Source: Mesotoga prima MesG1.Ag.4.2 | GTDB taxonomy: Bacteria > Thermotogota > Thermotogae > Petrotogales > Kosmotogaceae | Reading direction: 5' to 3' | NCBI RefSeq assembly: GCF_000147715.2 | Contig: NC_017934.1 | Coordinates: forward strand, 2,604,001 to 2,668,000 | Length of the DNA: 64,000 nucleotides | In this document: in pieces, positions 8,962 to 46,870 of the stretch | How positions within the stretch are numbered: position 1 is the stretch's first letter | How the letters are laid out: every line of letters begins with the position of its first letter | The notes under the pieces: generated by a model | What the model was told of the DNA's origin: nothing | Database searches by the model: none | What the model saw: the letters and a program-made list of their open reading frames with translations, nothing else | Translations under genes and position numbers: made by a program

Positions 8962-9629
8962 AGATCGCGGGAATCATAGCTCTGATAACCATCTTCATGA
9001 TCGTTCTTTTTTCCTTTGATCCGTTCGGCAGTATTCCAGAGCCGATCGAAGAAATAGTGAATCGAGTAAACGTACCCAATATAGTCACAAGCGTTTATCT
9101 TGAAACAAGACTCTATGACACTATTTTCGAGATAATAGTCTTTACGATAACTGCACTTGGTGTTGCAAGCCTTTTTACTTCGCTGCCCGTTAATAGCGAC
9201 GAGGGTCAGCAGGTATTCGGAACGGTTACTGTTTACAGCGGTGGACTGGCTGCACTGTCCATAACGCTCTTCCTATATGTTGTGATAAACGGTCACATAA
9301 GTCCCGGTGGAGGATTTGTTGGTGGAGTAGTTCTCGCAACGGGCGTTGTCACTTATGGACTCACTTCGAGTTTCAGGAGAGCGAGTCTTCATTATGAGAT
9401 CTTCAAGGTAAATATGCTGGAGAACGTAAGCCTTATTCTTATTTTTGCGTTTTCATGTTTCATCATAATCTTTCCAGAGGCTCACGCACAAATACTATCT
9501 GAGGCTGGATTCGGTTCGGTTTTCAGTGGCGGACTAATACCCATGATGAATATATTGATAGGAATCAAAGTATATGCAGGCGCCTGGAAGATGTCCAGCG
9601 AGTTCATAAACAGACGGGGAACATTATGA
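8958..9629 (+). CDS. mrpB: MbhE plus MrpB-type fused antiporter subunit
   Basis: A 223-residue membrane protein. The N-terminal ~95 residues, with YLETRLYDTIFEIIVFTITALGV, match the last piece of MrpA (MbhE). The rest is MrpB/MbhF, with the conserved HISPGGGFVGG and a C-terminal helix. It overlaps both neighbours by ATGA. The last segment of the missing large MrpA subunit is thus supplied as a fusion. The protein sits in the inner membrane. Confidence 0.85.
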   Translation: MKIAGIIALITIFMIVLFSFDPFGSIPEPIEEIVNRVNVPNIVTSVYLETRLYDTIFEIIVFTITALGVASLFTSLPVNSDEGQQVFGTVTVYSGGLAALSITLFLYVVINGHISPGGGFVGGVVLATGVVTYGLTSSFRRASLHYEIFKVNMLENVSLILIFAFSCFIIIFPEAHAQILSEAGFGSVFSGGLIPMMNILIGIKVYAGAWKMSSEFINRRGTL

Positions 9630-9985
9630 CGGGAATTCTCGTAATCTATTTCTCGATAATTGGTATGCTGGTCGGAGCAGTGGGCATGATTCTCTCGAAA
9701 AACATAATAAAGAAAATCTTGTCCCTTGGTATAGTAGAGACTTCCGTAAATCTTATGTATACCGGAATTTCGGCCAGAGGAGGGATAATTCCCCCCATAA
9801 TCAGCGGTGACTTTTCTAATGCAGTCTATGCAGACCCCATTCCCCAGGCCGTAATAATTACCGGAATCGTAATTTCATTTGCATTGCTCTGTCTTTCGCT
9901 CGTATTTGCGATCATAATTTACAACAAGTATCACACAATGAATGTCGAGACTATCGAAATGATTTTCGAGAGGGAGGAAAAATGA
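9626..9985 (+). CDS. mrpC: Mrp antiporter subunit C (NuoK-like)
   Basis: A 119-residue three-helix membrane protein related to NuoK of complex I, with VETSVNLMYTG and the ADPIPQAVIITGIVI motif typical of MrpC/MbhG. It is coupled by ATGA overlaps to the genes on both sides. Confidence 0.9.
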   Translation: MTGILVIYFSIIGMLVGAVGMILSKNIIKKILSLGIVETSVNLMYTGISARGGIIPPIISGDFSNAVYADPIPQAVIITGIVISFALLCLSLVFAIIIYNKYHTMNVETIEMIFEREEK

Positions 9986-11424
9986 TAGCATTAGTCTTCC
10001 TGCCCGTTCTCGGAGGCGTTATCTGCCTTGTATTGAAGAAGAGAAAGAACGTCAGCCTGATCATTGCCATTGTTACGGCTTTAGTCGGTGGAAGCGTCCT
10101 TCCATTTGTTATCTTTGACAACGCTTCGATAGACATAGGGAACTGGGGTTCACTTGGAATTGGACTTGCGATAGATGAATTAGCAATCCCCTTTCTGCTA
10201 TCGACTTTTATCGTTATGCTCGCGGTGATTTTGAATTCTATCAAGAAGGGTTATGACGGTTTTTTCTATGCCTTGATCCTCATACTTTACGGAACTCTAA
10301 ATTCAATATTCCTTTCGAGAGACCTTTTCAGTATTTTCGTAACCGTTGAACTCGCATCGATAATTTCCTTTATCCTAATTTCCTACGAGAAGAAGCCCCG
10401 TCAGGCCTGGGCCAGTCTGAAGTATCTGCTCCTCTCTTCACTAGGTCTGAACTTCTATCTACTAGGAATCGGAATCGTCTATATGGAAACGGGTTCATTT
10501 GCGATGGATAGTCTCGAACAGGTTTCGACTATCGCAACAGTTCTGATCTTTGGGGGGCTGGCCGTCAAGTCCGGTCTTTTCTTTTTCTCAATGTGGCTTC
10601 CGGATGCTCATTCCAATGCGCCAATCGAAGTGTCTCCAATACTATCCGGTCTTATTGTCAAACTTGATGTCTATTTATCGATAAGGTTCATAACCTATTC
10701 CTCTTTCGGCTGGATGAGAGATACCTATATGTTCATAGGAATCGTAAGCGCAATTGTCGGCGTCGTATTCGCAGTCAATTCAAAGAACGCCAAGAGGGTG
10801 CTAGCATATCACACTATCTCTCAAGTTGGATTCATGCTTGTGAATTGTGACAAGTCCTCTGCCTGGCACGGCTTCAGCCATGCAATATTCAAAACGCTCC
10901 TTTTTCTGGTCGTCGGAAATATTTCGGAAAGACTCGGTACAAAGGAGTATACAAAGTGGTCGGGGAAGATCACGAGGGTCGAGTACGCTTTTCTGTTGAT
11001 CGGTTCGCTCGCAATCGCGGGATTTCCCATGACATCCGGATGTGTGACGAAGGAGATCATCATACACGGCGCTTGTTGTCCCTCGTTGAAGATACTGCTC
11101 CTCATTGCTTCCGCTGGAACGGCCATGAGCTTCTCGAAATTCATCTTTCTCAAACCCGGAAAATCTTCCTCGCGGCCTGCCGCGAATACCGTTGCGGCTT
11201 ACTCCATTTTGTCCGGAGTCATAATCGTACACGGGATTATCGGTTTCGAAATATATATGTTCGAATCATTATTTGCCGTTATTGCGGGAGTAGCCGCATA
11301 TCTTCTGCTTCGCAAGTTTCTCAGACCTCTGCCGGTTTATTTCGAGAGGATCGATTCGGCTCTCTCTTCCTATCTCGTTCTATTTCTAATTTCGATCGTG
11401 TTGGCAATTATCCTCTCCTCTTGA
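9982..11424 (+). CDS. mrpD: Mrp antiporter subunit D (NuoL/M/N-like ion translocator)
   Basis: The ion-moving subunit, 480 residues with about 14 membrane helices. Family signatures include the Glu in FVTVELASIISF and the Lys-containing AVKSGLFFFSMWLPDAHSN, followed by SPILSGLIVK. The homology to complex I pumping subunits is clear. It is the only antiporter-like subunit in the operon, because a full MrpA is absent. The gene ends the operon, and its stop codon lies inside the -35 box of the tRNA-Trp promoter. Confidence 0.92.
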   Translation: MIALVFLPVLGGVICLVLKKRKNVSLIIAIVTALVGGSVLPFVIFDNASIDIGNWGSLGIGLAIDELAIPFLLSTFIVMLAVILNSIKKGYDGFFYALILILYGTLNSIFLSRDLFSIFVTVELASIISFILISYEKKPRQAWASLKYLLLSSLGLNFYLLGIGIVYMETGSFAMDSLEQVSTIATVLIFGGLAVKSGLFFFSMWLPDAHSNAPIEVSPILSGLIVKLDVYLSIRFITYSSFGWMRDTYMFIGIVSAIVGVVFAVNSKNAKRVLAYHTISQVGFMLVNCDKSSAWHGFSHAIFKTLLFLVVGNISERLGTKEYTKWSGKITRVEYAFLLIGSLAIAGFPMTSGCVTKEIIIHGACCPSLKILLLIASAGTAMSFSKFIFLKPGKSSSRPAANTVAAYSILSGVIIVHGIIGFEIYMFESLFAVIAGVAAYLLLRKFLRPLPVYFERIDSALSSYLVLFLISIVLAIILSS

Positions 11425-21139: not shown

Positions 21140-23075
21140 GTGCGCCCGGCATGATACACAACTATAGGGTGAAAGACCCGAATGCGGGGAGTCAAAGAAG
21201 CATTAGCCAGAGGCAAGGGTGTCACTGGTAACGGTGAATCTGAAGGAAGCCCGAGGCAAAGTCCGGAACTGAACGAAAGTGAACCAGGGATGGCCGTTAC
21301 AGTAGGGTAACCCTGCCAGATAAGGGAAAGCCCTGACTCCAGCTGTAAAGGTTTGGATGGCAGGATTCGGATGAAAGTGGTGTATCTTACCCGGGGAAGT
21401 CCTCATGAGTCCGAAAGGGGTAACCGTTAGCAAGGAGGTGATCCAAGTTAACGGAAAGCTCAGGAGGATGGCAGATGAACCCGTAGTAGTGAAGAACCTC
21501 TCCGAAAGGGGAAGGGACCTTGGCTAAAAGCCAAGGGGGTGATGGGGAAGTCGAAAGGCTCCATCACTTGCGAAGGGGGGAAGGATCGAAGAAATGTGAT
21601 CGGAAGACAGTGAAGAGATTCAGGTTAGACAGTTAAAGACAAGGTACATATTCCCGAAAGGGTAGAGAAGCCAGTCATTAGTTGTCGCAATAACATCTGA
21701 GACTACAACCGTTGGAAGAGAGCATACAGGAGAAAGAGATGAAGTATTACAGTCTAATCGACAAAGTCTATTTGGAGAAGAACCTTTTAGAAGCCTATGG
21801 CAGGGTAAAATCCAACAGAGGAGCCCCTGGGATAGACGGAGTAAGCGTAGAAACATTTGGAGAGAAACTTCTCGAAGAAATCGAGAGACTATCCGGAGAA
21901 ATCAAGAGAGGCGAATACAAACCCATGTCACTCAGGGGGGTAGAGATCCCGAAAGCCGACGGTAAAACGAGGCAATTGAGAATACCTGCCGTAAGGGACA
22001 GGGTTGTACAGCAATCTCTTAAGGAGGTACTCGAACCGATATTCGAGGAAGGATTCCATCCCTCCAGTTACGGTTACAGAAAGGGAAGAAATGCCTGGCA
22101 GGCAGTGGAGAAGGCGAAAGCCTTTGCATCCAAATACGGACTGTGTAATGTAGTGGAACTTGACCTCAGTGAATGTTTCGACACTCTGGATCATGAGAAG
22201 ATAATAGACTCCGTAGCCGAGAGAGTGAGTGATGGAAAGATACTCAAACTCATACGGGCAATACTGAAGAGCGGAGTAATGGAAGATGGAGTCTGGAAGG
22301 AAACAGAGACTGGCAGTCCACAGGGAGGAGTAATAAGCCCGCTGCTGGCTAACATCTATCTGAACGAATTCGATCAGAAGATGAAAGCCAGAGGAATAAG
22401 GATAGTCAGATACGCAGACGACATACTGATCTTCTCGAAAACCCAGGAAGAAGCCCGAGAGTTTCTGGCAATCGCGATAAACATACTGGAGATTGACATG
22501 AAGCTCAAAGTCAACAGGAACAAGACGAGAATCACAACACTTGAAGATGGATTTCACTTTCTTGGCTTTGAAATAAAAGGCGAGAGAGTGGGGATAGAGA
22601 AATCCAGATTGAAGAGATTCAAGGAAAAGGTCAGGAAACTTACAAGAAGGAATCAGAGCAGGCCGGTAAAGGAGATAGTGAAACAGCTCAATCCACTGTT
22701 GAGGGGATTCGCCAGCTATTTCAGGATAGTGGATTTCCAATCCATCTTGAGGGGACTTCTGAGCTGGATAAGGAGAAGGCTAAGAGCCATCATACTACAC
22801 CAGTGGAAGACAACTAAGAAACTGAACAGAGTTCTCAGAAGGAACGGATGGAAAGAGAAAGTCAACATGAGAATGAACAAATGGCGATCTTCTCACTCAA
22901 AAGCAGCCAATTACGCCATCCCCAACAGGTTCTTTGAAGAGATGAACCTAGTCGATATGACAAAATACCATCATCCCCTGTCGAAATTTCCGATACTTGA
23001 TCCATGAGCCGTGTACGCGGCCCGTACGCACGGTTCTGTGAGAGGACGAGGGGCTCCGCCCCTCTCCTACTCGAT
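21140..23075 (+). mobile_element. Group IIC intron
   Basis: The 5' end GTGCGCCCGGCATG and the segments AACTATAGGGTGAAAGACCC, GCAAGGGTGTC, AATCTGAAGGAAGC and TTACCCGGGGAAGTC resemble the known Oceanobacillus iheyensis group IIC intron. The domain V hairpin is at 23006-23038. Domain VI follows, and the 3' end is CTACTCGAT at 23075. The 1936-nt element carries one maturase gene without an endonuclease domain, as is normal for the class. It sits 3 bases after a palindromic hairpin, the kind of target class C introns use. Confidence 0.88.
21739..23007 (+). CDS. Group II intron reverse transcriptase/maturase
   Basis: A 422-residue protein that helps the intron splice and copies it into new sites. 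It has RT blocks with SSYGYRKGRNAWQAV, TETGSPQGGVISPLLANIYL and the catalytic YADD. A maturase X domain follows, with NPLLRGFASYFR and RLRAIILHQWK. No HNH endonuclease is present, which fits a class C element. The ATG at 21739 follows AGGAG; a TTG at 21712 is an alternative. The stop codon overlaps domain V. The frame is intact, so the intron may be active. Confidence 0.93.
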   Translation: MKYYSLIDKVYLEKNLLEAYGRVKSNRGAPGIDGVSVETFGEKLLEEIERLSGEIKRGEYKPMSLRGVEIPKADGKTRQLRIPAVRDRVVQQSLKEVLEPIFEEGFHPSSYGYRKGRNAWQAVEKAKAFASKYGLCNVVELDLSECFDTLDHEKIIDSVAERVSDGKILKLIRAILKSGVMEDGVWKETETGSPQGGVISPLLANIYLNEFDQKMKARGIRIVRYADDILIFSKTQEEAREFLAIAINILEIDMKLKVNRNKTRITTLEDGFHFLGFEIKGERVGIEKSRLKRFKEKVRKLTRRNQSRPVKEIVKQLNPLLRGFASYFRIVDFQSILRGLLSWIRRRLRAIILHQWKTTKKLNRVLRRNGWKEKVNMRMNKWRSSHSKAANYAIPNRFFEEMNLVDMTKYHHPLSKFPILDP

Positions 23076-23668
23076 GTGCTTTCCGTGGTTGGGGATAGCG
23101 GATTGGGGGTTGGATAGAGCAAAGGGACTGGTTGGCCGTTGAATGGTTCTCCGTTCACCGAATAAAAAACCTGTTCTTCGTTATCGGTCGAAGTGAAAAA
23201 ACGAGAGATTCTGAATCAAGTTCAGAATGACGAATTCTTTCGCTCAGCGACCAGCGGGTTTTTTCTCTTAAGCGCACAGCGGCTCTTCTCCCGCGAACCG
23301 GAACTGGCACGAAGTGCGACGGTCCTGATGTTCTGCATCAGTTGTGTTTTTCGGTTGTTCTTGCCACTGCTTGCATTGACTGGCCTCAGCTTGAAGCTGA
23401 AACTGGCACCACGAAGTGGTACTGGCAAAGGCGAAGCCTTCACTGGCGGCGATGATTCTCGCCTTTTGACTGGCTCCTGAATGCTTCCCGCTGAAAGCGG
23501 CCTCACTTCCCCGGATGATACTCCGGGCATCACTTCCTGCGCAGCAGCATCACTTCCGCTGATGCTTTTTGGCGCATCACTTCCCGACGGAGTTGGCATT
23601 GCGTCCGCCTATGTTTTTCGGCGCCTTGCGTCCAATCAAAAAGCATCACTTCCTGCGAAGCAGCCTTC
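23076..23668. repeat. Intergenic repeat mosaic, block 2 (right part), with a mini-hairpin array
   Basis: The first part repeats words of the other blocks, including CTGAATCAAGTTCAGAATGA at 23212 and TTCTTTCGCTCAGCGACCAG at 23233, copied exactly near 33851. Bases 23307-23663 form an array of tiny hairpins, such as GCAC-GAA-GTGC, CCAC-GAA-GTGG, AAGGC-GAA-GCCTT, CCGCT-GAA-AGCGG and CTGC-GAA-GCAG. Recurring words ACTGGC, CATCACTTCC and CATTGCGTCC separate them. An open frame across the array looks like chance. The array runs to within 6 bases of the DeoR stop codon. Confidence 0.75.
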
Positions 23669-33630: not shown

Positions 33631-33916
33631 ACCGTGGTTGGGGGTAGGAGGTTAGGGGTAGGAAAGAGCAAAGTGAAACCGGTTCGCCGTTGGACGGTTC
33701 TCCGTTCTCCGAGAAGAACGGTTGTGAGTTCCTAGATGCAAGTTGCAAGAAAAAGAAAGGAGACCTGTTCTAATGGCAATGAAGTAAGCTCGTTACTGAC
33801 ATTCAACAAGAGAACATCATCGAGATTCTGAATCAAGTTCAGATGACGAATTCTTTCGCTCAGCGACCAGCGGGTTTTTTCTCTTAAGCGCACACCGGTT
33901 CTTATGCTCGCAACTG
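33631..33916. repeat. Intergenic repeat mosaic, block 3 (left part)
   Basis: Words shared with other blocks include GAAACCGGTTCGCCGTTGGA (33674) and CTGAATCAAGTTCAGATGAC (33827). The stretch TTCTTTCGCTCAGCGACCAG through TTAAGCGCACA (33851-33893) copies 23233-23275. The block is broken by a group II intron at 33917 and later by an IS110 element, and continues at 37343. Confidence 0.7.
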
Positions 33917-35815
33917 GTGAGTAGCCCAGGGGGATTTCACCCCCAGGCTCTCTCAGAACCGGACTTGAATCTCTCGATTCATCCGGCTCCCATTATCCAG
34001 CCGTATAGAATATCCCCATTGTCCAGTGTACAAATAGACGAGGCTCTCTGCGAGCAAGAGTTTCTAGCCATTTACCCGCTTTTGTACGACCTCTCCTTTT
34101 CTTGTACTTGTTTCTTACCCACTGAACTAAGGCTTTGTTTAGCTGACTCAGTACTGTATACATCTCAAATCTGCGAAAGTGTCCATAGTAGTTTATCCAA
34201 CCTCTTATTACCGGGTTGATTCTTTCTGAGAGTTCTTCAATACTCAGGTATGACTTGGTTTGAAGTCTCATTCTCCGGATCTTCTGTCTCATCGCCTTCT
34301 TTGCCTGTTCACTCACTGCAGGGGTGAAGCTGTAGAAGATCCTCCCGTTTCTGGCTTTGCAGCTACGGACTCTGAAGGTGTATCCTAGAAAGTCAAAGCT
34401 TGTATTTGGATACTCGCCCTTCCTTTTATCGTCTTTGCAGTAGACAATACGGGTCTTCTCTGGATGAAGCTTTAGTTTGCATTCTTCCATTCTTTCTTTG
34501 AGACTTTCAAGAAGAAGCCGGGCTTCCTCCAGAGTTCTACAGTGTATCACTCCATCATCTGCGTATCTGGCAAAGGGCTTATCCGGATGAGTTCTCTCCA
34601 TCCACTTGTCGAAGGCGTAATGCATGAAGAGGTTAGCCAGTACAGGGCTTATTACTCCTCCCTGTGGCGTTCCCTTGCTCCTCTCTTCGACTCTTCCATT
34701 AGGTTTCTGAAAAGGGTGCTTTCAGCAATCTCTCTATGTAGAGTATTAGCCATGGAATCTTCACATGTTTCTTGACTGCCCTCATTAGTAGTTCATGGTC
34801 TATGTTGTCGAACAGTCCTTTAATGTCGAATTCCAGTACCCAGTCATACCGCCAGCATCTCTGCCTCGTTACTTCAAGGGCATCTATCGCTGACTTTCCC
34901 TCCCTGTATCCGTAGGAGTCCTTATGGAAGTGTGGATCTACTAGGGGATTTAGATAGATTTTGGCTACCATCTGGGCTACTCTGTCCCCCACTGTGGGGA
35001 TTCCCAGTACTCTCTTGCCTCCACTCTTCTTTTCTATCTCTATCGCTTTTACTGGAGGTGGAAAGTAACTGCCCGAGGACATTCGATTCCAAATCTTGTA
35101 GAGATTGTTGTCCAGATCGGCTTCGAACTCTTTCAGGCTTACCTCGTCTATTCCTTCTGCCCCTCTGTTCTCTTTCACTTTCTTGAATGCTACCAGTACT
35201 ACTTTCTTGGGGATTTCATATGACCTCATCTTGTCTGTTGGCTCCTTCCTTGTCTCTGTTCACAGTTCCTCCCTTTCGGTTGTCTGCACAGAGTTGGTTG
35301 ACTAACCTACAAAACTGGATAACACAGTCCCTTCGCTCCACTCCCATTACAGGAGCTTCATCACTACTACGGACTGTTCCGCCCCTGAAATCTGGCATCG
35401 GTACTTTCACCCTCGTGGGTCTTCCACTTGCGGCTTTTCCCTTAACATCCAGATCCAGGTTCCCAAGTTCCTAATCGAAGCCTGTACCAGGGTCACGCCA
35501 CCTATATGCCGGTCACCATCTGGACAGTAAGCAGGTTTCCTCCAGACTTATCCCGGGATAGTTCCACCCCCCGGTTTAGATGACACTAGTAGTTGTTACG
35601 ACACGTTCACGGTGGTTCACTTGTATTCGTCTCCTCTGGTACTCACCTGACGGGATCACTGTCCCGCCTTTTCCCGTAACGTTCACTACCATGGCTCTTT
35701 ACCACAGCAGCTTACGGTGGTTTGAAGCCTCCACCTGCATGGCGGCTTCGAGGGGCCCTCCCTCATCTTCGATTAAGCATGGCTTGAAGTTTCCTTCTTC
35801 GCCTTCTTGGCACAC
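33917..35815 (-). mobile_element. Second group II intron, minus strand
   Basis: On the minus strand the 5' end GTGTGCC lies at 35815. The 3' part has a domain V hairpin of the form GAGCCGGAT...GTCCGGTTCTG, then a domain VI stem of GGGGGT...CCCCC type, ending in CTACTCAC at 33917. About 590 bases of ribozyme 5' structure lie between 35230 and 35815. The element is 1899 nt. Its reverse transcriptase carries a one-base frameshift. Flanking sequences are dispersed-repeat words on both sides. Confidence 0.8.
33993..35229 (-). pseudogene. Frameshifted group II intron reverse transcriptase/maturase
   Basis: Two abutting frames together give a normal maturase of about 412 residues. The first part (35229-34699) has KENRGAEGID, KDSYGYREGKSAIDAL and FDIKGLFDNIDHELL. 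It runs out of frame just before the conserved sequence that would read KPNGRVEERSKGTPQGGVIS. The second part has FARYADDG and the maturase domain with NPVIRGWINYYGHF. The frames join by removing one base from the AAAA run at 34708-34711. This could be real decay, a sequencing slip in a homopolymer, or slippage. It differs clearly from the class C maturase at 21739. Confidence 0.85.
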
Positions 35816-37342: not shown

Positions 37343-37800
37343 AACGAAGGACCAAGGACGGCTCTTTGCAGCGTGCAGCGGCTCTTCTCCCGCGAAGCGG
37401 AACTGACCGCACGAAGTGCAATGGCCCTGATGTTCTGCATCAATTTTGTCTTTCGGTTATTCTTGCCACTGCTTGCAGTGACTGGCCTTTGCGAAGCAAA
37501 TACTGACTGCACGAAGTGCGACTGGACTACGTTAGCAGAATGGCTTTGAAGATCTTCCCCGCAAAGCGGGCATTGCGTCCTGGCATGTTCTTCGCCAGCC
37601 TTGCGTCCACTGATGCTCCTCAGTGCATTGCGTCCAATGTTCTATAAGGGCATCACTTCCCGACGAAGTCGGCCTCGCCTCCTGCCAAAGGCAGCCTTGC
37701 ATCAATATTCTATTCTTCCTCGCGTTGGCGACCCTTACTTCCCGCGACGCTCTTAACAATACCAATGCCGCGCCTTTCTGAACTAATCTTACCAGCCAGT
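37343..37800. repeat. Intergenic repeat mosaic, block 3 (right part), with a mini-hairpin array
   Basis: The block resumes after the IS110 with AACGAAGGACCAAGGACGGC. From 37390 it becomes an array of small hairpins. Examples are CCGC-GAA-GCGG, GCAC-GAA-GTGC (twice), CACTG-CTTG-CAGTG, TTTGC-GAA-GCAAA, CCCGC-AAA-GCGGG, CGAC-GAA-GTCG and CTGCC-AAA-GGCAG. Words such as ACTGGC, GCATTGCGTCC, GCCTTGCGTCC and GCATCACTTCC separate them. The order and number of hairpins differ from the arrays at 23307 and 46527. No gene is seen. Confidence 0.75.
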
Positions 37801-45754: not shown

Positions 45755-46870
45755 CATCTGATAAGAACCAACTCATTTCGTCATCCTGAAGCGCTCCTGT
45801 TCAGGATCCGTAAGTGGTCGGAGGTAGCAGGTTGGGTGTTGGTCAGGAGCAAAAAAGAGATTGACCCAGTCCTCAAGAAGCAATTCAAAACCATCTGATA
45901 AGAACCAACTCATTTCGTCATCCTGAAGCGCTCCTGTTCAGGATCTGGTTTTTTCAGGAACCGTGGTTGGTGGTAAGAGGTTATGGTCGGAAAGAACGAA
46001 GTGAAACCGGTTCGCCGTTCGCCGAAAAGAACAGTTGCAAGTTGTGAGTTGCATGTGAGAATAGATTCGATCCAAACGGATGTAGGGGCGTGCGGCTGCA
46101 CGCCCGCTGTCAACAATGATCAGTCTTCCCAAGGATGAGATCGTCCTCTTCAATAGTTTAACGAACCGAATTCTGGGCAGAATCATGTCTGAATAACGCA
46201 AAGAATGTCATCCCGAACTTGTTTCGGGATCTGGTTTTGATCCTCTCGGCGGGGGACGGAGGACCTTTGATGGACAATGTTGTCTTCACAGCGATCAGCG
46301 GGTTCTTTCTCTTAAGCGTACAGCGGTTCTTATCCTTGCAACTGCTCTTTCGAAGGACGGGTTCACGGTTTTTGACGAAGGACCAAGGACGGCTCTTTGC
46401 AGCACTCAGCGGGTTTTTGCTCTTAAGCGTACAGCGGTACTTACTAAGGACGGTTTTTCCAGCGCTTAGCGGGTTCTCCGCTTTTAAGCGTGCAGCGGCT
46501 TTTCTGCCCACGAATTGGAACTGGCCGCACGAAGTGCAATGGCCCTGATGTTCTGCATCACTTGTGTTTTTTGGTTGTTCTTGCCATTGCTTGCAGTGAC
46601 TGGCCTCAGCTTGAAGCTGAAACTGGCACCACGAAGTGGTACTGGCGAAGGCGAAGCCTTCACTGGCGGCGATGATTCTCGCCTTTTGACTGGCCTGTGC
46701 CAGCAGACTGGCTTCGATATGGCCTCCTGCCAGAGGCAGCCTTGCGTCAATATTCTATTCCTCCTCGCGCCAGCGAACCTCACTTCCTGCTGTAGGCAGC
46801 ATCACTTCTGCTCTTGGACGGAATCCTTTACGAAGAAGAACCTGGACTCGTAGAATCAGAAGGAATAATG
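45755..46870. repeat. Intergenic repeat mosaic, block 4, with a direct repeat and a mini-hairpin array
   Basis: A direct repeat of about 55 bases begins CCATCTGATAAGAACCAACT at 45753 and again at 45890. It includes the palindromic CATCCTGAAGCGCTCCTGTT. The hairpin word GTCATCCCGAACTTGTTTCG recurs at 46207. The phrase CAGCGGGTT...CTTAAGCG...ACAGCGG occurs two or three times in a row (46297-46500). Bases 46527-46802 form the third mini-hairpin array, largely matching 23307-23480 (GCAC-GAA-GTGC, CCAC-GAA-GTGG, AAGGC-GAA-GCCTT) and then diverging. No gene is seen between 45545 and 46968. Confidence 0.75.

What the first reader, a model, noticed from the sequence alone, without database searches (positions are those of the whole stretch)
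23307..23663. Arrays of tiny GAA-loop hairpins separated by recurring spacer words (three loci)
In three intergenic blocks (23307-23663, 37390-37752, 46527-46802) the sequence is a chain of 4-7 bp perfect hairpins. Most have three-base GAA, AAA or AGA loops, for example GCAC-GAA-GTGC, AAGGC-GAA-GCCTT, CCGCT-GAA-AGCGG and CTGCC-AAA-GGCAG. They are separated by a few fixed words: ACTGGC, GCATCACTTCC, GCATTGCGTCC and GCCTTGCGTCC. Stem sequences change from unit to unit while spacers are kept, and unit number differs between loci. Compensating changes in the stems imply selection or a copying mechanism that preserves pairing. It is not CRISPR-like (units too short and irregular) and not an ordinary REP or ERIC element. 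It may encode a structured RNA, a protein-binding array or a replicating palindrome system.
Basis: partly seen in the sequence, partly recalled or inferred. Interest (0 to 1): 0.72.

Follow-up and report, generated by a model that had tools for sequence, protein, structure and literature searches.

The report
Modular arrays of tiny DNA hairpins
Gaps between genes in this bacterium and its relatives hold chains of very small hairpin modules joined by fixed linker words; the hairpin stems change freely but mostly stay paired, and the loops follow a rule known for unusually stable single-stranded DNA hairpins, so the fold rather than the letters seems to be what is kept.

Summary
The three blocks belong to a family spread over the 2.98-Mb host genome and much of its genus: 89 copies of linker GCATCACTTCC (0 read backwards) and 66 close ACTGGC pairs (3 backwards). 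A second genus of the family carries the ACTGGC form with mostly other stems.

Modules are mostly 9-17-nt hairpins between fixed linkers. Three stem column pairs are the top three of 153 covarying pairs (18-mers) and of 78 (13-mers). Three-base loops are mostly GNA and four-base loops mostly GNNA, in one polarity and usually closed by C-G. That is the published rule for extraordinarily stable DNA mini-hairpins (PMC4686876), not the RNA GNRA rule. Arrays differ between copies and species by whole modules. There is no consistent orientation to genes, no Rfam match, and no Y1/RAYT gene was found in the host.

Best reading: a new REP/BIME-like family of modular DNA mini-hairpin repeats, shuffled at linkers and kept because the fold on one DNA strand matters for copying. 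Anatomy, covariation, loop rule and module turnover are shown; ssDNA recognition and the enzyme are inferred. An RNA role is not excluded.

The parts
23303..23663 (+). Mini-hairpin array 1: ACTGGC-linked half (about 23303-23474) then GCMTCACTTCC/GCMTTGCGTCC-linked half (about 23484-23663); 11 hairpins in the greedy parse
23408..23420 (+). Example GNA hairpin accac-GAA-gtggt between two ACTGGC words
23510..23527 (+). Example hexaloop hairpin cccgga-TGATAC-tccggg (includes the C-G pair supplied by the two linkers)
23527..23537 (+). Linker GCATCACTTCC (further copies start at 23547, 23574, 23643)
23596..23606 (+). Linker GCATTGCGTCC; variant GCCTTGCGTCC at 23623-23633
37390..37752 (+). Mini-hairpin array 2; 14 hairpins in the greedy parse (37390-37731)
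46527..46802 (+). Mini-hairpin array 3; 46507-46694 is 93% identical to 23290-23474 of array 1; includes the GNNA hairpin tcgc-GCCA-gcga at 46765-46776; 11 hairpins in the greedy parse

Best explanation
The blocks are members of a lineage-specific family of interspersed DNA repeats built like a kit. Cassettes are mini-hairpins of three main shapes: stem + GNA triloop, stem + GNNA tetraloop, stem + A-T-closed [T/C]GNTYY hexaloop. They are joined head to tail by short fixed linkers (GCMTCACTTCC, GCMTTGCGTCC, ACTGGC); in the two 11-nt linkers the last C and first G add one base pair to the stem between them. Shown: copies across the genome and most of the genus, paired stems with compensated changes, loop rule and polarity, module-by-module turnover, orthologous sites with and without arrays. 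Inferred: (a) linkers act as homology joints at which slippage or recombination adds, removes and swaps whole cassettes; (b) blocks spread between intergenic sites as DNA; (c) stems stay paired because the strand carrying the GNA loops folds into mini-hairpins when single-stranded, and that fold, not its letters, is what the copying or processing machinery tolerates or recognises. The enzyme is unknown; no Y1/RAYT gene was found in this genome. In this view the arrays work like REP/BIME elements and have no fixed duty towards particular genes.
For: 89 GCATCACTTCC in the genome vs 0 backwards; in the genus G009 133, G003 116, G004 44, G001 39, G008 14, G005 12. ACTGGC pairs: G009 137, G006 133, G004 80, G003 70, G000 66, G001 39, with 0-4 backwards in these six. 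Covariation: three stem pairs rank 1-3 of 153 column pairs (114 distinct 18-mers) and three rank 1-3 of 78 (26 distinct 13-mers), segments taken without regard to structure. Loops: G at position 1 in 24 of 26 and A at position 3 in 26 of 26 distinct 13-mers, middle base free; G first in 13 of 13 and A last in 11 of 13 distinct 14-mers. ACTGGC form: of 78 distinct segments listed for G000, G001 and G006, 58 have a central stem; G..A loops in 49 of 58 (23 of 28, 17 of 20, 9 of 10), T..C in 0 of 58. Background three-base-loop hairpins away from arrays: G..A or T..C in 124 of 874. Second genus: 16 of 26 distinct segments are hairpins; 12 of 14 three/four-base loops are G..A, 11 of 15 stems are new, two hexaloops are TGTCCT and TGTCTT. 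Own vs chance segments 53 of 60 vs 2 of 79. A clean indel of exactly two modules, 55 nt; differing arrays at orthologous sites. Flanking frames in all orientations.
Against: No transposition event or enzyme was seen. Strand-specific pairing was not proven: single mismatches are G.T 25 vs A.C 13, P 0.07, and the linkers also show more C>T (15) than G>A (6). Replication-strand preference could not be tested: GC skew gave no clear replichores and the strand-run test gave P 0.10. The other stem pairs covary less: ranks 8, 33 and 43 of 153 in 18-mers, 27 and 48 of 78 in 13-mers; the 14-mer class none (ranks 9-49 of 91, stem nearly invariant); 19-mers ranks 2, 4, 30, 53, 93 of 171. Tetraloop counts rest on few independent stems (mainly TCGC and CTGC); both tetraloops of G006 also fit GNRA. 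44 of 114 18-mers hold one non-Watson-Crick pair. AAA, AGA and TGA loops break the rule in the window. Folding of block 1 is not remarkable.
Confidence: 0.5

Rival explanations
1. Structured RNA: the arrays are transcribed and the hairpins act in RNA, for instance to protect or stop transcripts or bind a protein, as proposed for some REPs.
For: Conserved pairing with free stem letters is what RNA selection gives. A G.T over A.C leaning on the linker strand (25:13, P 0.07) is in the direction expected for RNA of that strand, though also for ssDNA.
Against: Tetraloops fit GNNA better than GNRA: third loop base is C or T in 9 of 13 distinct 14-mers. Flanking open frames in every orientation: ++ 9, +- 6, -+ 6, -- 5 among the 26 of 42 arrays with a call on both sides; frames are mechanical and four loci are copies in a recent duplication. 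No Rfam match on the arrays. Orthologous sites lack arrays or hold other modules.
Confidence: 0.2
2. Mutational self-repair without selection: DNA polymerase template switching between the arms of short imperfect palindromes keeps making the stems perfect, so compensated changes need no function.
For: Arm homogenization by template switching is documented for short inverted repeats (PMC8604942 passages; PMC7202029 and PMC3820800, search listing only). It explains paired stems with free letters and no link to genes.
Against: The same process also inverts spacers, including GAA to TTC in yeast (PMC8604942, there only on arms over 9 bp), yet T..C loops are 0 of 58 here and loop positions 1 and 3 of the triloops are nearly fixed. 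It does not explain fixed linkers, dispersal or the shared loop rule in a second genus.
Confidence: 0.15
3. Ordinary REP-type elements mobilised by a RAYT (Y1 transposase), present in relatives and lost in this strain.
For: Y1 genes, several RAYT-like (about 250-340 aa), occur in G003, G004, G006, G007, G009. In one of 13 Y1 loci (L228, G004) an ACTGGC-hairpin-ACTGGC unit begins about 40 bases past the gene's stop; L227 (G003) has two ACTGGC units about 500 bases from its gene and L229 (G009) two 11-nt linkers about 600 bases away. The GCMTTGCGTCC linker places CGTC just before the hairpin, recalling CGTC-tagged REPs, reported also from Thermotogae (PMC3733652).
Against: No Y1 domain found in G000, which has 89 linkers (its plasmid contig is masked), nor in G001 or G005, which also have arrays. 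G007 has a RAYT-like gene but only background word counts. 10 of 13 Y1 loci show neither an ACTGGC pair nor an 11-nt linker. Most linkers lack GTAG/CGTC.
Confidence: 0.15

Closest known systems
REP / BIME (repetitive extragenic palindromes and their mosaic clusters), including GTAG- and CGTC-tagged families
   Same: Intergenic, high copy, palindromic, clustered as mosaics, restricted to a lineage.
   Different: Palindromes mostly of 9-17 nt instead of 20-40 bp; many exchangeable stems; GNA/GNNA loop rule; the tag is not constant; no RAYT found in the host.
Mitochondrial double-hairpin elements / repetitive hairpin-forming elements of fungi and sponges (PMC2800124, PMC7218506, PMC10234125: search listing only)
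   Same: Small hairpin-forming repeats in intergenic DNA (from titles, abstract starts and recall).
   Different: Organelle genomes; the present kit of fixed linkers with free stems and GNA/GNNA loops was not compared in detail.
Extraordinarily stable DNA mini-hairpins d(GCGAAGC), GNA/GNNA loops (Hirao, Yoshizawa; via PMC4686876 passages)
   Same: Same loop rule and short stems with G-C pairs.
   Different: Known from chemistry and aptamer work; the passages read do not describe a natural genomic array of them.
IS200/IS605-type subterminal hairpins (Borrelia stem loops PMC2775950, listing only)
   Same: Small hairpins active as single-stranded DNA (recalled).
   Different: No Y1 transposase found in this genome; many different hairpins in one array.

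Membership tests
REP / BIME | High-copy intergenic palindromes clustered with joining words | tested here: met
REP / BIME | Palindromic unit of 20-40 bp | tested here: not met
   Units between linkers are mostly 9-17 nt; size definition from PMC3733652
REP / BIME | Unit tagged at one end by GTAG or CGTC | tested here: inconclusive
   CGTC precedes the hairpin in GCMTTGCGTCC linkers only; the GCMTCACTTCC linker has CTTC there and ACTGGC has neither
REP / BIME | RAYT (Y1 transposase) in the genome, associated with the repeats | tested here: not met
   PF01797: 0 matches in G000; present in 5 of 10 genus genomes. Of 13 Y1 loci one has an ACTGGC unit about 40 bases from the gene and two have array words further off, so a link in relatives is not excluded
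CRISPR | Identical repeats separated by unique spacers of even length | tested here: not met
   Linkers fixed, hairpins drawn from a small set, mostly 9-17 nt; a real CRISPR of this genome is elsewhere
Structured RNA family | Match to a described RNA family | tested here: not met
   No Rfam match on the arrays at gathering score
Structured RNA family | Compensated base changes | tested here: met
   does not separate RNA from ssDNA
Structured RNA family | Transcription of the array | not testable with these tools
   no RNA data
Stable DNA mini-hairpin (GNA/GNNA) | Loop GNA or GNNA on a stem with at least two G-C pairs | tested here: met
   Met by most three- and four-base-loop modules; rule from PMC4686876; the hexaloop class is outside the rule
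Stable DNA mini-hairpin (GNA/GNNA) | Measured thermal stability as ssDNA | not testable with these tools
   needs melting curves

The most novel reading that the evidence does not exclude
A mobile or self-amplifying DNA element class selected for fold instead of sequence: interchangeable DNA mini-hairpin cassettes, kept extraordinarily stable by GNA/GNNA loops, that are recognised as single-stranded DNA by an undescribed enzyme in this bacterial family and assembled into arrays through fixed linkers.
Probability: 0.25. Interest if true: 0.85.

Novelty: new variant of a known kind. Interest (0 to 1): 0.6.

Why it matters
It would be a natural, genome-wide case in which the loop rule of extraordinarily stable DNA mini-hairpins is seen as an evolutionary signature. 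Since the DNA rule (GNNA) and the RNA rule (GNRA, recalled) differ, the family suggests a way to ask from sequence alone whether a covarying structure acts as DNA or as RNA. It also gives a test bed for how compensatory changes arise in DNA repeats and for what single-stranded-DNA enzyme could read a fold instead of a sequence. If it proves passive, it warns that covariation in intergenic DNA is not proof of RNA function.

Tried and rejected
CRISPR or CRISPR-like: rejected, linkers are fixed and units are palindromic.

RAYT/Y1-driven REP: looked for with PF01797 in 10 genus genomes; none found in G000. In relatives the flanks of the Y1 genes mostly show other repeats, but 3 of 13 loci hold array words, one of them an ACTGGC unit about 40 bases from the gene.

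Replication-strand bias: GC skew, also at third codon positions, gave no clean replichores; strand-run test P 0.10 on 36 collapsed loci. Left open.

Strand test by mismatch type: G.T 25 vs A.C 13, P 0.07; inconclusive because linkers also lean to C>T.

Block folding: weak z-scores for block 1, not used as support.

Plasmid or phage vector: no match of array 1 in plasmids or phages. Viral-contig word pairs (58 + 42 stretches) look like chance: 2 of 79 distinct segments hold a hairpin of 4 bp. My first count, 0 of 106, required the outer pair and was not a fair control.

Exact insertion sites: a first gap-parsing attempt printed nothing, a second failed on parameters, the third worked and gave seven clean indels, one of them module-exact in an array and between copies that may be paralogous. 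The 16-base CRISPR duplication may be an insertion mark or only degenerate end repeats; not used as proof of transposition.

Literature: Mesotoga with palindromic, intergenic/repeat or transposase, REP+RAYT+Thermotog, GNA triloop and mini-hairpin terms, mosaic and double-hairpin terms. PMC12306157 lists Mesotoga prima in a table of palindrome counts and says Thermotogota motifs show no similarity to others; none of the passages seen describes this family. Most subscription papers are not in the library.

Full report
What is there. The three blocks read as claimed. Written in the linker orientation, array 1 is ACTGGC-hairpin-ACTGGC-hairpin..., passing over into hairpin-GCMTCACTTCC-hairpin-GCMTTGCGTCC-hairpin. 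In the two 11-nt linkers the last C of one and the first G of the next add a base pair to the hairpin between them. In the window alone the hairpin count exceeds dinucleotide shuffles only modestly: 11 vs 7.4, 14 vs 7.0, 11 vs 6.1, with shuffle maxima 13, 12, 11. Fold z-scores of block 1 are weak. Taken alone, the window would not have settled the matter.

Copies. The host genome has 2,975,953 bases in 2 contigs. The word GCATCACTTCC occurs 89 times, 0 times read backwards; array 1 has 51 BLAST matches, itself included. Of 61 genomes searched, the word is abundant in the same genus only: besides the host, G009 133, G003 116, G004 44, G001 39, G008 14, G005 12, and 0-2 in G002, G006, G007; all other genera have 0-4. 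The ACTGGC pair pattern is distributed differently: G009 137, G006 133, G004 80, G003 70, G000 66, G001 39, G005 18, background in G002 and G007, and 22 and 11 in two genomes of a second genus of the family against 3 and 1 backwards. Among named GTDB contigs an exact composite pattern hit three: a Mesotoga MAG, a Kosmotogaceae MAG and an 'Acidobacteriota' contig (records near the host may be left out there). The last shares 571 bases at 93% with the host, so it is probably misbinned.

Chance control. The same linker pairs found by chance in viral contigs enclose a hairpin of at least 4 bp in 2 of 79 distinct segments; in the own genome 53 of 60. Of 20 distinct ACTGGC-pair segments listed from other genera (the second genus not among them), 0 have a central stem; of 7 from G007, 1.

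Pairing is conserved, letters are not. All distinct segments of a given length between linkers were taken, paired or not. Among 114 distinct 18-mers the stem column pairs 2-17, 3-16 and 4-15 rank 1, 2 and 3 of all 153 column pairs (APC-corrected G statistic); the other three stem pairs, which vary less, rank 8, 33 and 43. Watson-Crick cells are 610 of 684 against a shuffle mean of 445 and maximum of 467. Among 26 distinct 13-mers three pairs rank 1, 2, 3 of 78 and the other two 27 and 48. The 13 distinct 14-mers (stem TCGC) are almost invariant and say nothing (ranks 9-49 of 91); among 54 distinct 19-mers two of five pairs stand out (ranks 2 and 4 of 171; the others 30, 53, 93). All other column pairs serve as the control for relatedness.

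The loops follow a rule with polarity. In the 13-mers loop position 1 is G in 24 of 26, position 3 is A in 26 of 26, and the middle is A 14, G 6, C 4, T 2. In the 14-mers position 1 is G in 13 of 13, position 4 is A in 11 of 13, and the third base is C or T in 9 of 13. The closing pair is C-G in 22 of 26 13-mers. In the ACTGGC form, G..A loops are 23 of 28 (G000), 17 of 20 (G001) and 9 of 10 (G006) distinct hairpins, T..C loops 0 of 58; none of the 6 tetraloops of G000 and G001 fits GNRA, both of G006 do. Perfect three-base-loop hairpins elsewhere in 800 kb of the genome have G..A or T..C loops in 124 of 874 cases, near the chance level. GNA and GNNA loops with at least two G-C pairs are the published rule for extraordinarily stable DNA mini-hairpins (PMC4686876, passages read). 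RNA tetraloop selection would favour GNRA (recalled), which is not the general pattern here. For the hexaloop class (A-T closed, mostly [T/C]GNTYY) I could name no known rule.

A second genus repeats the format with other stems. There 16 of 26 distinct segments are hairpins of at least 4 bp (3.7% expected from shuffles). Of 14 with three- or four-base loops 12 are G..A; 11 of 15 stems are not in the list of Mesotoga stems compared; its two hexaloops are TGTCCT and TGTCTT, close to the hexaloop class of the window. So linker word and loop shapes are kept while stems turn over.

Turnover is by modules. At the site of array 1, G009 (neighbouring gene 93% identical) has an array that shares only a few modules in order with the window (two hairpins with three linkers, and a degraded third); G004 and G007 show no 11-nt linker in the 900 bases held, G001 none in the roughly 160 bases before its contig ends, and G003 has a different block. 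At the site of array 2, G009, G004, G001 and G003 each carry different blocks; G007 shows none. About 980 bases with array modules in G000 correspond to about 135 bases with a smaller, different array in G009. One clean indel between near-identical copies is exactly two modules, 55 bases. These are what recombination or slippage at the linkers would give; dispersal to new sites must be by some DNA route not identified here.

No tie to genes, and no transposase in the host. Of 42 arrays with three or more linkers and enough flank, orientation to the nearest long open frames is ++ 9, +- 6, -+ 6, -- 5, the remaining 16 undetermined on one or both sides. Rfam gives only group II introns and tRNAs in the window. 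PF01797 (Y1) gives no match in G000, whose plasmid contig is masked. Y1 genes exist in G003, G004, G006, G007 and G009, several RAYT-like, mostly with other repeats at their ends. Against a clean separation: in L228 (G004) an ACTGGC unit lies about 40 bases from the gene, and L227 and L229 hold array words 500-600 bases away; the other 10 of 13 loci have none. No plasmid or phage record matches array 1.

How it most likely works. Shown: cassettes, linkers, covariation, loop rule, polarity, module turnover, lineage restriction. Inferred: the linker strand folds when single-stranded (replication, repair, or an unknown transposition intermediate) into a string of mini-hairpins; that fold is what copying or processing acts on; linkers supply short homology. 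Rivals are an RNA role, passive arm repair by template switching (documented, with spacer inversion, in PMC8604942, passages read; here no inverted loops are seen among 58), and a RAYT lost from this strain. Strand-specific tests done here (mismatch type and strand runs; replichores) were inconclusive, so the DNA-over-RNA preference rests mainly on the loop rule and on the lack of consistent orientation to genes.

Relation to the known. It works like a REP/BIME mosaic, but fails REP membership on unit size and, in the host, on the RAYT, and is inconclusive on the GTAG/CGTC tag: CGTC does stand before the hairpin in the GCMTTGCGTCC linkers. RepRanger counted palindromes in Mesotoga prima and reports that Thermotogota motifs show no similarity to others (PMC12306157, abstract, passages and one methods section read) without, in what I read, describing this family. 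I call it a new variant of a known kind.

Noticed in passing
L080, L299 (G000:C1:1736200-1740500, 1712000-1715500) and L287 (G009:C14:46000-49100): A CRISPR array (repeat GTTTCCATACCACTATGGTTCTTACGCAAC) is interrupted in these stretches by 12 blocks of 226-862 bases (8 of them 285-287), most holding a REP-like palindrome and a mini-hairpin array. In all but one, both edges keep the same 16-base hairpin part of the CRISPR repeat, one copy with a base change. Either insertion with a 16-base duplication next to a hairpin, or degenerate array ends.
   Followed up: partly
window 23207-23232: GATTCTGAATCAAGTTCAGAATGACG looks like a CGTC-tagged REP just upstream of array 1; similar elements recur in the intergenic mosaics shown.
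   Followed up: no
L179 about 9624-10608 and L238: Another word array upstream of the hairpin arrays: repeats of AACCCG plus about eight variable bases, usually with a CT or TCT.
   Followed up: no
window 21222-23075 and 33916-35764: Two group II intron signatures near arrays 1 and 2; window 22000-23084 (part of ORF 21712-23007 and the intron end) has at least a dozen copies in G007.
   Followed up: no
L227-L234: RAYT-like Y1 genes in G003, G004, G006, G007 and G009, several near inverted repeats of the type AAATGGGTACAGAC...GTCAGTCCC; no match in the host.
   Followed up: partly
G000:C1 1.82-1.85 Mb and 1.90-1.92 Mb: Five linker positions recur with a constant offset of 76,303 bases, pointing to a large recent duplication; two further pairs are about 86.5 kb apart.
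   Followed up: no
L136: A contig filed under Acidobacteriota carries this family and 571 bases 93% identical to the host; probably misbinned.
   Followed up: partly
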